This document shows, piece after piece, positions 33,139 through 39,233 of a DNA stretch of 64,000 nucleotides. Location of the stretch: assembly GCF_002127325.2 (NCBI RefSeq), contig NC_035445.2, positions 87,197,912 to 87,261,911 on the forward strand, given 5' to 3'. Origin of the DNA: Helianthus annuus. Lineage: Eukaryota > Streptophyta > Magnoliopsida > Asterales > Asteraceae. The position numbers were made by a program, and so were the translations under genes. Numbering within the stretch: the first letter of the stretch is position 1; each line of letters opens with the position of its first letter. The notes under the pieces are model-generated. The model ran no database searches. It saw nothing but the letters and a program-made list of their open reading frames with translations, and had not been told where the DNA came from.

Positions 33139-33287
33139 TCTATTATATATAATAAACATAAAGATTTGGGCTGACGTGGCATCACCTTAGAGCCTCCTAG
33201 ATTCATTTTTGGCGGGAAAATGAGCTGGGTTAATTTTTGTTCGCGGATCCCGGTTTTGATGTGATCCAACCCGTTTTATGACCCGGG

Positions 33288-33594
33288 TATATAAATCACC
33301 TAAAAACCTAAATTCATGTGGCCTCATTATTTTCCTTCACTGGTTCACACCGAAACCTTAGCCTCCGTCTTCTTCTGCCATCTGAGAGGTTCTAACATCT
33401 TTTCTTTGCTAAAACCCTAGATATCTCTACTACTGCGCTTCCTCAGATCATATTGGATCTTCAACAATTTCTCTTCATCTCAATCACCATCGATTATGTG
33501 GATTTGAGGTCATAATTTCATCGAAAAACTAATGTTTTGTTGTAATTCTTCTCTACTTGCAGACATCCAACACGGATTTTACATGAAGGTACAC
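33288..33594 (+). promoter_or_regulatory. Promoter-like TATA and leader captured in the Helitron
   Basis: TATATAAAT at 33288 is followed by a C/T-rich leader (CCTCCGTCTTCTTCTGCC, about 33363) and an AAACCCTAG word at 33413. A possible first non-coding exon ends at ATGAAG|GTACAC near 33594. This looks like a host promoter with a 5' intron carried with the gene fragments; which gene it came from is not clear. Further exon-like blocks at 33783-33885 and 34472-34557 could not be assigned. Confidence 0.45.
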
Positions 33595-34650
33595 TTTTTC
33601 TCATCTTTAAGTGTTTATCTACTGCATCTTAATCCTTTTGTTAATCGATTAGACTTCTTTTGGTTTTGATTTTTGTTTCATTTTTTATGTTTGATCGATT
33701 GCTTGCTTACTTACGGGATTTTGAATAGTTTTGATTATTATTTGATTCTTGCTATCATTCTTGGTGTGGTTTTATGTTACAGATCTGAAAACTAGGACAA
33801 AATGCCCTAGCCGCCCCTTCAGCTTATACGGCTAGGGTTCCGGTCATTAGTCATCCGTTTTTCGCTTCAGAATCCATGGTGTTTAGGTATCCCCAAATTA
33901 TTGTTTGTTATATTGATTTTTTATTGTTTGCAAATAGTGTGTTTGTTGGTTTGTGATCTTATAACCAGTACCCAAAGGATAAAGATTGAAAATTTATGTG
34001 TATTGTTTGATAATTGAGGTGGGTTTGTTCTCTAATTTCATAAATGTAAGTTTTCTTCATGATTCGTGCTTTATAGCTGCAAAATCTTTATTTAAAATTC
34101 GTTTGTTCATCAATTAGTGTTTTTCAAAACTTGGATATGATCATTCTTTTCCGTAGATGTTCCAATACTGTTTCCAAGGTTAGTATATGTTCATCTTTCT
34201 TCTATAAATGCTTTTGAGTATTTTTTCAATCAATTAAATGGGTTTTGGGTATTGTTTCCTTGAAAGCTTTGAAATTGATGTGGAATTTATTACAGATACG
34301 GTATTAATGGCCAAAACTGAATATGAGTATCACATAATTCTGATTTTTTTTGGGTATGGATTTTGAGTTTTATACCTTTTCAATATGCTTTCACATTCTT
34401 TTCCATGCCAGACTATTTTATTTTACTAGATTACTAGAGTAAAAAGTGTGTCTTTGACTATATAATTTAAGGTACGGGAATCTACTGGGGTTTGTATGCA
34501 AGTTCAGGGACACAATGATGCATTTGCCTTAGAATTGTTGGTATCGTGAAAGCAACAGGTATGATAAATTTAACAAACTTATCATCTTGGTTATACACGC
34601 ATATTTCGTATTCGTTTTGTTTTCTTTTTTATGAAATAAAAATTTAATAT

Positions 34651-35226
34651 TTGTGGAATGATGGCAGCTTATGGTCAGCCTTTGGTAAGACACATGATCT
34701 CATATATCTATCTTTATATTTATAGGTGTCATGTGTGGGTACTCAATTCATTTTAATTGTGTTTTGTAGGTTCATCCTCAGTTTCTTGAGCAAGCAAGGA
34801 TGCCTTTGCCACTTGAAATGGCGCAAGAGCCTGTTTACGTGAATGCCAAAAAATACCATGCGATATTAAGGCGAAGGCAATCCTGTGCAAAAGTAGAGCT
34901 TGAGAAGAAACTTATAAAAGACAGAAAGGTCAGTTATAGTTTTATAGTTTTATAGTTTTATATATATTTTTTGTGTGTGAAAATCTGGCTAGGCAAATTG
35001 GTAAACAATTTTGTGATATTTACAGCCTTATCTTCATGAATCACGGCATCAGCATGCTATGACAAGGGTAAGGGGCTCCGGTGGTCGTTTTGCAAAGGAA
35101 ACTGACGCTAATAAGAACACAACAGGTTCGGGTTCAAGTTCTGCCATGTCATCATCCCAGTCGGTGAATTCAAACCGGGTGCACTTGAGCAATGGAAAAG
35201 TAAAGCGGTTACTCAAGATATGTTAA
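34651..35226 (+). pseudogene. NF-YA (CCAAT-binding subunit) gene fragment in the Helitron
   Basis: Three exon pieces join in phase: about 34651-34684 (GMMAAYGQPL, its 5' side lacking an acceptor), 34770-34928 and 35026-35226, with GT-AG introns. The product contains the core NF-YA domain: the NF-YB/NF-YC interaction helix (EPVYVNAKKYHAILRRRQ), linker, and DNA-binding part (PYLHESRHQHAMTRVRGSGG), then a Ser-rich tail ending at TAA 35224. Several positions that are nearly invariant in the family are changed: KQYHGIL is KKYHAIL, RQSRAK is RQSCAK, HAMRR is HAMTR. Upstream activation-domain exons are missing. Altered key residues, a truncated exon and the transposon setting argue for a decaying captured copy, not a working transcription factor. 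Confidence 0.87.
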
Positions 35227-35449
35227 TTTATGCTAAAATTATGGTCATGCATTAATGATTAATGGTACCGTTTCTTTTAACTTTAGTAATTCCTTTATCT
35301 CATATTTACACCCGGTGAGATAAAACGAAAGAGTGAAAAGTTTAACCACTGTCGGATGTTAAAACCACATTATACTTATTGTGCTTTTAATGCGGCGAAT
35401 GCACTCTTAATCGACCTGATTATTTATTGTTTCTTTCTACATGATCAAG

Positions 35450-35762
35450 TTTACTAAACGGAACGGTTTCTTCTTCTAAAAGCAAGTTCGATGATAAAAT
35501 AGAAGCATCTTATGCTAAAACGTATTTCCATTACTGCGGGCAACTGCTTCATCAGCAAAATATGATGCAGGATTATGTGAGAACAGGTCAATATATATCG
35601 CTTTCTTTTTCTTTTTTGAGTTGCATGTATCATATTGTGCTTATTAAAGCACGGGTCAAATGAACACATTTGGGATTTTATGGAGCTGAATTACACGATA
35701 AATGTTTTTTTTTCTAGGTTCCTACTATGCTGCGGTTATTGAGAATAAAGCCGATAGCTGGT
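35450..35762 (+). pseudogene. CARM1/PRMT4-type arginine methyltransferase fragment in the Helitron
   Basis: Exon 35450-35586 encodes KFDDKIEASYAKTYFHYCGQ followed by LLHQQNMMQDYVRTG. After a GT-AG intron, exon 35718 onward gives SYYAAVIENKADSW, then TGA at 35763. This is the segment just before the SAM-binding motif of plant CARM1-like histone arginine methyltransferases. In the family the sequence continues into the GxGxG loop; here it stops. The junction is in phase. It lies only 220 bases after the NF-YA stop and in the same orientation, though these genes are unrelated, which is what a Helitron capture chain produces. It is too short to have activity. Confidence 0.85.
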
Positions 35763-37736: not shown

Positions 37737-37831
37737 CATTTTTTTTACCCATCTTAACCATTAGAGATAATATATGTAAATTTAAATCGACCGATTCAAA
37801 TAAACAGGTGATGGATTGTTTCTTGATTTAG

Positions 37832-37905
37832 GTATACAAGGAAGAGGCTATTAAAGGCAAGGAGATATACAATAGCGAAATGACGCATTACAAAGTGTGG
37901 GCAAG
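37832..37905 (+). pseudogene. Possible HMG-box exon fragment in the Helitron
   Basis: After an acceptor-like TTGATTTAG the sequence encodes VYKEEAIKGKEIYNSEMTHY. It resembles the last helix of an HMG box in plant ARID/HMG proteins (Y-x-x-x-A-x-K-x-K-x-x-Y-x-x-E-M). It is only 25 residues, so the call is tentative. Confidence 0.4.
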
Positions 37906-38073
37906 CTTAATATGTCATACTTTTTGTGTGATTTTAATTATGTATTAATCAATCATAGATAGTTGTTAATATAGATAACTTTCTCGAGCCCGGGAAGCAA
38001 TCCCAGGTGATGACATTGTCTGTGCTTCCATGTATCTTTGTTGTATATAATTGAGTTTCTTTGTCACGTGCAG

Positions 38074-38330
38074 CTGAGTACTCTACCTTCTCTGGAATCA
38101 AGAAAGGAGCAGTTCTTCAGGAAGCTAGGGTCGTTAATGATCCTCAGTTGGATTCAAGGAGGTGTTCTCAGGTGCTTCTTTTGTTTATTTATATCAACAT
38201 ATAGGTGCTACATAATGTATCGATTCATCCTCTTACATGAGCATGATCCAACATATTATTTTCAGATTTATGTTGCCAGGTTATCACAAACCTGCTTAAT
38301 CTCTTGAATAAAGGTGATACCTTCACAAAT
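38074..38330 (+). pseudogene. Coatomer subunit gamma (gamma-COP) fragment in the Helitron
   Basis: Exon 38074-38171 encodes EYSTFSGIKKGAVLQEARVV followed by NDPQLDSRRCSQ. After a GT-AG intron, exon 38280-38330 encodes VITNLLNLLNKGDTFTN. Both match the N-terminal part of gamma-COP, the trunk subunit of the COPI vesicle coat, and the splice phase is right. The next exon of the gene is not present. An acceptor CACGTGCAG precedes the first exon. This is a clear third unrelated host gene in the same element. Confidence 0.85.
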
Positions 38331-39202
38331 GTCAGATCATGTTTTATAAACTGTCCGGATGCTTTATAAGTTTCTTTATATCTCACACGTTAATATGTCA
38401 ATTTCTTTATATGATTTTAATTATAGATTAGTCATTAATAATTAATATATAGAACTAATGTGCATTTGGTTAATAATTAATATATAGAACTAACGTGCAT
38501 TTGGCTGAGATCACTGTGTATTATAATGACCTTAAATGGTTCTATTGAATAGGTGTACAGTGTGACGGCTTCTCATCACAAGGTCCGCAACCATCACATC
38601 CGGGTAATCATAAGTACTACCATTCCTGCTAAGCTTTGCAAGAGGGAGTTCACTATAGATTTGTGGATTTTATTGTTTTTTATTTGTAAATTTTGTTTGT
38701 AATTCAATTTTTGTTATTTAATTCAATATGCAACTTTGTTTATAAGAAATTTATTAACACAATAATGAATTATATATATTATGTTCAACCTGTGTGGTAG
38801 ACGTCCATTGGTCGAGCACATATACACATTGAAGGTAAATAGCGCATATCTGTCTGGTCTATAGAATATTATGAAAAACTCGAAATAATAAATCGTAGAA
38901 AAATATAACCGTCAGATGGGGTTCGGTAAAATATGAAACTGGAACTATTTGGGCAAGGTTGTAAAGAATCGGGTACTAACCAGTAAATTGAGGAAATCTT
39001 GCATTTATAATATAATACTCATGGTGTTGATGTTTTTTATAGTTAATACGCATTGGCTTTTGGAATCAAAACACACGGTAGCGCCTCATGCCTTTTAAAA
39101 CCAAGCAACATTTTGAAAGTGATTTATATAATATGTCAATATGTTTGTATTATTTAGTTAATATATCGATCATTAATAATTAATATTAATAACTTTCTCC
39201 AG

Positions 39203-39233
39203 CCCGGGAAGCATTTCCCGGGTGATAACCTAG
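39203..39233 (+). other. Helitron 3' terminus: hairpin plus CTAG
   Basis: An 8-bp GC-rich stem (CCCGGGAA/TTCCCGGG, loop GCAT) ends at 39222, seven bases before CTAG, with a host T at 39234. A decayed relative of this hairpin lies at 37988-38007. Confidence 0.85.

What the first reader, a model, noticed from the sequence alone, without database searches (positions are those of the whole stretch)
33139..39233. A 6.1-kb Helitron that has gathered fragments of at least three unrelated host genes
Seen: a TC end after A, a perfect GC-rich hairpin seven bases before CTAG, then T. Between these, in one orientation, are exon-intron pieces of NF-YA, a CARM1-type methyltransferase and gamma-COP, with a possible HMG-box exon. 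Known: Helitrons capture and shuffle gene pieces. Inferred: all were taken up by one element. A transcript from the captured promoter (33288) could splice a transcription-factor domain, a methyltransferase segment and a vesicle-coat segment together.
Basis: partly seen in the sequence, partly recalled or inferred. Interest (0 to 1): 0.9.

Follow-up and report, generated by a model that had tools for sequence, protein, structure and literature searches.

The report
Mosaic plant Helitron carrying host-gene pieces
This is a real jumping DNA element of the Helitron type that has stitched together broken pieces of at least three plant genes and copied the patchwork to other chromosomes; such elements are well known in plants, but the joins and a dead end left inside it show much of the order in which it was put together.

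Summary
33139-39233 is a non-autonomous Helitron (A|TC, 3' hairpin, CTAG|T). The 3.01-Gb genome (sunflower inferred) holds at least two more copies with the same boundaries, on C17 (22 substitutions in 6,085 sites) and C8 (82 in 6,046). A paralogous empty site of the C17 copy shows exact insertion between A and T. NF-YA, CARM1/PRMT4 and gamma-COP pieces are real and traced to host-gene loci on C14, C13 and C10. The HMG-box piece is unproven.

New here: stepwise growth. PRMT4 is shared with other elements that lack NF-YA, so NF-YA came later. Inside lies an old Helitron 3' end (37907-38014), hairpin weakened, final CTAG missing, joined to gamma-COP and then to another Helitron's tail. Four joins carry 2, 6, 2 and 6 bases of microhomology.

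Not supported: a fused protein. NF-YA joins PRMT4 out of frame and stops; 20 nonsynonymous to 4 synonymous base changes against the gene loci. RNA could not be tested. A known kind; moderate interest.

The parts
33139..39233 (+). non-autonomous Helitron, 6,095 bp
   Evidence: copies C17:69398005-69404098 and C8:38318641-38331032 with the same boundaries; empty site of the C17 copy
33139..33485 (+). 5' module with terminal TC and the TATA-like site at 33288; shared with loci on C7, C17, C11 and C9
   Evidence: 90-92% matches starting at base 1 (three) or base 5 (C9)
33484..34657 (+). module X, unidentified; all or part of it also on C13 (43.09 Mb), C9, C2, C11, C5
   Evidence: 95-96% matches
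34653..35185 (+). captured NF-YA piece: exon parts 34653-34684, 34770-34928, 35026-35185 with introns
   Evidence: 94% to C14:149233961-149234500, where coding sequence continues on both sides; Pfam and PDB
35178..35755 (+). captured CARM1/PRMT4 piece; exon parts 35178-35217, one ending at 35586, and 35718-35755
   Evidence: 92% to C13:123559325-123559909, which differs from the element beyond both breakpoints; PDB
35756..36158 (+). module behind PRMT4, shared with elements on C9, C15 and (from 35774) C11
36190..36685 (+). repeated module of unknown nature
   Evidence: 84-90% matches on C8, C14, C4
36722..37736 (.). nested TIR element with internal repeats
   Evidence: arms 79-92% complementary; related copies
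37739..37908 (+). module with a peptide VYKEEAIKGKEIYNSEMTHYKV (37832-37897) that resembles an HMG-box end by eye; not proven
37907..38014 (+). internal old Helitron 3' end: weakened hairpin, terminal CTAG missing
   Evidence: 27 other places match this stretch, 23 of them ending at 38014; the 3 fetched all go on CTAG|T; fold -3.8 kcal/mol, z -0.2
38013..38359 (+). captured gamma-COP piece: exon parts 38074-38171 and 38280-38333
   Evidence: 87% to C10:153759800-153760142 over 38025-38359; PDB
38354..39233 (+). tail of another Helitron type, gives the working 3' end
   Evidence: 97% to C12:151323351-151324222; also C12:79.08 Mb and C7:10.98 Mb
39202..39223 (+). 3' hairpin of the working end; CTAG at 39230-39233

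Best explanation
A non-autonomous plant Helitron, presumably moved in trans by RepHel proteins, built stepwise from older Helitrons. Shown: it moved as one unit to three places. A PRMT4 piece with the same right breakpoint sits in elements on C9 and C15 that lack NF-YA, so PRMT4 came first and NF-YA was later patched between module X and a shortened PRMT4 piece, inside the element. At the 3' side an older terminus without its last four bases is joined to gamma-COP and then to another Helitron's tail, which supplies the present end. Inferred: the internal patch arose by microhomology-guided template switching during break repair (filler-DNA type), and the 3' extension by a template switch at, or bypass of, a weak terminator. 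The captured exons are carried as decaying passengers.
For: Three copies with the same boundaries in different flanks; exact A^T empty site of one; 157 exact 3' ends, control 0; 150 of 150 scored PF14214 loci (of 1,778 candidates) over the cut-off, many with 1,215-residue open frames, so enzyme sources exist. Source loci with abrupt breakpoints. PRMT4 right breakpoint and the next 403 bases shared with C9 and C15. Microhomology of 2, 6, 2 and 6 bases at the four joins where both parents are in hand; random joins give 6 or more in 0.18-0.26%. Coding differences 9:0, 4:0 and 7:4 nonsynonymous to synonymous base changes.
Against: No autonomous element with these ends was found: the nearest of the 150 listed RepHel loci to the 100 listed (of 157) 3' ends is 278 kb away; both lists are partial. 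Only 4 of at least 7 joins could be tested for microhomology, and two of them have just 2 bases, which random joins reach in 17-19%. gamma-COP differs from its locus about twice as much as the other two (25/180 intron sites against 27/404 and 13/179), so it may have been captured earlier by another element. The empty site was tested for one of three copies.
Confidence: 0.85

Rival explanations
1. 3' side by simple nesting and read-through: element A inserted into an older Helitron B that already carried gamma-COP, lost its CTAG, and then transposed with B's 3' end as terminator.
For: gamma-COP is the most diverged piece (25/180 intron sites), which fits an older capture by B. The internal hairpin is weakened in all three copies (CCCAGG for CCCGGG). 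Hairpin deletion raised read-through in Helraiser from about 11.7% to at least 36% (PMC4778049, passages read). The gamma-COP intron has an A^T site at the join (ACA^TTGT).
Against: Plain insertion would leave CTAG before TTGT; the copies read AACATTGT, like the gamma-COP intron (GTGACATTGT), so the loss needs at least a deletion and a substitution. No gamma-COP plus tail without A was seen among the 40 scored candidates (of 599).
Confidence: 0.35
2. The element makes a functional chimeric protein or regulatory RNA and is kept for it.
For: The NF-YA domain itself is open in all three copies and most splice sites are intact; maize Helitrons are sometimes transcribed and spliced into chimeric RNAs (PMC4528327, passages read).
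Against: 20 nonsynonymous to 4 synonymous base changes against the gene loci; NF-YA to PRMT4 out of frame; splice donor GT to AT in two copies; 2-bp frameshift just behind the NF-YA domain in the C8 copy.
Confidence: 0.04
3. Segmental duplication or assembly artefact that only looks like a transposon.
For: None found.
Against: Copies differ by 22 and 82 substitutions, sit in unrelated flanks, and an empty site exists.
Confidence: 0.01

Closest known systems
Gene-capturing maize Helitrons (PMC13317346 and PMC4528327; passages read)
   Same: host gene pieces carried in non-autonomous Helitrons, sometimes several genes in one
   Different: other host and genes; here source loci, part of the capture order and an old terminator can be read
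Sfru_Hel1A stepwise Helitrons of Spodoptera (PMC6544945, passages read)
   Same: internal pieces gained stepwise, 2-13 bp end junctions at source loci (filler-DNA model)
   Different: here pieces of coding host genes, and in addition a replaced 3' end
Helraiser read-through events and Myotis Helitrons with new 3' ends (PMC4778049, passages read)
   Same: old 3' end bypassed and a new one downstream used; hairpin acts as terminator
   Different: here the old end lacks exactly CTAG and the new end comes from another Helitron type

Membership tests
Helitron (non-autonomous) | 5' TC and 3' CTAG | tested here: met
   3 of 3 copies
Helitron (non-autonomous) | 3' subterminal hairpin | tested here: met
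   -9.9 kcal/mol, z -3.6
Helitron (non-autonomous) | insertion between A and T, no target duplication | tested here: met
   empty site for the C17 copy; C13 also A|...|T; the C8 copy follows the G of another Helitron's CTAG instead of A
Helitron (non-autonomous) | no RepHel of its own | tested here: met
   no stop-to-stop frame of 150 aa or more in the element; the element was not scanned whole with PF14214
Helitron (non-autonomous) | autonomous partner with like ends | tested here: inconclusive
   none of 150 listed RepHel loci within 278 kb of the 100 listed ends, both lists partial
Filler-DNA / microhomology capture | short identity at joins between parents | tested here: met
   2, 6, 2, 6 bases at 4 of at least 7 joins; the 2-base ones are not beyond chance
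End bypass (read-through) capture | old 3' end kept inside, captured DNA between it and a new 3' end | tested here: inconclusive
   old end present but without CTAG
Expressed chimeric gene | spliced transcript from the element | not testable with these tools
   no RNA data

The most novel reading that the evidence does not exclude
The internal 3' end records a template switch made four bases before a Helitron's own terminus: the copying strand left the old end at 'AC', ran through about 340 bases of gamma-COP and landed on another Helitron at TCCAGA, taking that element's terminator. Helitrons would then swap terminators through a host gene in one event, not only by running on into neighbouring DNA.
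Probability: 0.3. Interest if true: 0.5.

Novelty: new member of a known kind. Interest (0 to 1): 0.35.

Why it matters
How Helitrons take up genes is not settled (end bypass or filler DNA; PMC6544945, passages read). Here one recently copied element shows an internal patch and a replaced 3' end, with source loci, breakpoints, sister elements and an old terminator in one assembly, so the order of events can be checked against other lines. It does not support a new functional protein.

Tried and rejected
HMG-box exon: Pfam at E 1 and 10 and PDB at E 10 gave nothing. A search with PF00505 did not complete. Kept as unproven.

Identity of module X: a separate genome search did not complete; the fetched C11 locus has no frame of 110 aa. 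Empty sites of the C13 and C8 copies were printed in a script but not searched. Rfam gave no match in the window. A regular-expression scan timed out and was replaced by BLAST. The PRMT4 exon at 35718 was started one base late, so its frame there is wrong and it is left out of the counts. Exon limits are off by one to several sites (first PRMT4 exon ended at 35210 instead of 35217; the start of the second was not determined), so the intron counts are approximate.

Paper searches; their listings show no paper on this element, but only a held open-access library was searched and only listings and passages were seen. The three 66-base repeats at 37908, 38391 and 39129 were considered as three ends, but by eye 38391 has no hairpin behind it and lies inside the swapped tail.

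Full report
Setting. The window lies at C13:87197912-87261911 of a 3.01-Gb assembly of 334 contigs.

The element is a mobile unit. The stretch 33139-39233 occurs at least three times with the same boundaries: here, on C17 (bases 1-6095, 99%) and on C8 (bases 1-3934 and 3934-6095, split by about 6.3 kb) (40 of 1,244 candidates were scored, so copies may be missing). Flanks are unrelated: A|TC...CTAG|T at C13 and C17; on C8 the 5' end directly follows the CTAG of another Helitron, so the base before it is G. C13 and C17 differ by 22 substitutions in 6,085 compared sites, C13 and C8 by 82 in 6,046. The C8 copy differs at 2 of its last 60 bases, one in the hairpin. The joined C17 flanks match C15:34065177-34065581 over all 400 bases at 94%, and the alignment runs through the join as CAAA^TCAAAC with nothing lost or doubled; a second relative on C12 (85%) has a gap at that point. 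The exact 3' end pattern is found 157 times, the reversed control 0 times.

The gene pieces. NF-YA: Pfam PF02045 E 2e-25, PDB 6r2v E 1.8e-23. CARM1: 24 PDB sequences at E up to 1, 21 of them CARM1, best 4.4e-11. gamma-COP: two coatomer gamma sequences of three hits, best 3.9e-7. For the last two pieces Pfam gave only weak matches to unrelated families (E 0.21 and 0.056, below cut-off). Source loci: NF-YA on C14 (94%), where coding sequence continues on both sides of the matched stretch; PRMT4 on C13 at 123.56 Mb (92%), which at the point where the element breaks off reads on, by eye, as ADFAGRVVVDVGAGSG; gamma-COP on C10 (87%) with the next exon downstream. Introns are kept, so capture was from DNA. 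These loci may be the donors or close relatives of them; whole genes were not checked.

Order of assembly. Loci on C9 and C15 carry PRMT4 and the following 403 bases with the same right breakpoint, but a longer PRMT4 left part and no NF-YA; the C9 locus also has the 5' module and part of module X. So PRMT4 came first, and NF-YA was set later between X and the cut PRMT4 piece. An internal patch cannot come from running past the 3' end. Against the source loci, intron differences are about 13 of 179 (NF-YA), 27 of 404 (PRMT4) and 25 of 180 (gamma-COP).

The inner end. The stretch 37907-38014 matches 27 other places among the 42 matches (40 of 599 candidates scored); 23 of the 27 end at 38014. 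Of three fetched, all three go on CTAG|T. In our element the next bases are ATTG; the gamma-COP intron on C10 reads GTGACATTGT near the same point, with a few bases more before the match resumes, and the C8 copy reads GTGATAACATTGT. So CTAG was either replaced by gamma-COP at a two-base match, or lost after nesting. The inner hairpin has CCCAGG instead of CCCGGG in all three copies and folds poorly (-3.8 kcal/mol, 80 of 200 shuffles as good, against -9.9 and 0 of 200 for the working end); whether this came before or after is unknown. gamma-COP then joins the tail of another Helitron type at TCCAGA; three relatives of that tail share about 40 further bases upstream that our element lacks.

Joins. 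With both parents in hand, four joins show GT, GGTGCA, AC and TCCAGA. Random joins of the same parents share 0.72-0.77 bases on average, 2 or more in 17-19% and 6 or more in 0.18-0.26%. So the two 6-base joins stand out, the two 2-base joins do not. At the GGTGCA join the element keeps one more NF-YA base (C) where PRMT4 has T. At least three more joins have only one parent in hand and were not tested.

Function. The NF-YA reading frame enters PRMT4 out of frame and stops. The C8 copy has a 2-bp deletion just behind the NF-YA domain and a 1-bp gap in the first exon part. Differences from source loci in coding parts: NF-YA 9 nonsynonymous and 0 synonymous base changes in 318 nt; PRMT4 4 and 0 in 99 nt; gamma-COP 7 and 4 in 150 nt. 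These fit decay without selection, though some changes may lie on the gene side. The PRMT4 splice donor is AT in C13 and C17, GT in C8. The TATA-like site at 33288 lies in a 5' module shared with four other loci.

Who moves it. 150 of 150 scored PF14214 loci pass the cut-off and many have open frames of 1,215 residues, but none of them lies within 278 kb of the 100 listed 3' ends, so the autonomous partner is not named.

Known context. End bypass and filler DNA are the two published models, and stepwise gain with 2-13 bp end junctions has been reported in an insect Helitron (PMC6544945, passages). Helraiser shows terminator bypass, more often without the hairpin (PMC4778049, passages). Gene-carrying Helitrons are common in maize (PMC13317346; PMC4528327; passages). 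The element is therefore a new member of a known kind, unusually readable.

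Noticed in passing
L037/L036 (C8:38320789-38327115): The 6.3-kb insert that splits the C8 copy has Helitron ends on the opposite strand (A|TCTATCTATT...CTAG|T, hairpin by eye); the C8 copy also directly abuts the 3' end of yet another Helitron.
   Followed up: partly
L029:5840-5860 (C9): The 5' module of the PRMT4-bearing C9 locus starts at base 5, right after a different hairpin and CTAG, as if another Helitron had inserted at TCTA^TTAT.
   Followed up: no
window 10168-22651: Copia-type retrotransposon whose reverse transcriptase (PF07727) is split between frames ending at 15866 and starting at 17171, followed by long frames at 18363-22651 with at most a sub-cut-off Transposase_32 match.
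   Followed up: partly
window 36722-37736: TIR element with imperfect direct repeats inside, present in all three Helitron copies; no clear target duplication seen by eye.
   Followed up: partly
L043, L044, L045 (C2, C11, C5): Part of module X also sits in a separate repeat family, 5.4 kb alike at 97% between C2 and C11, without a frame of 110 aa in the C11 locus.
   Followed up: no
window 49018-49445 and 56754-57173: Two further long inverted repeats that share arm sequence (58 nt, 83%), perhaps one foldback or TIR family.
   Followed up: no
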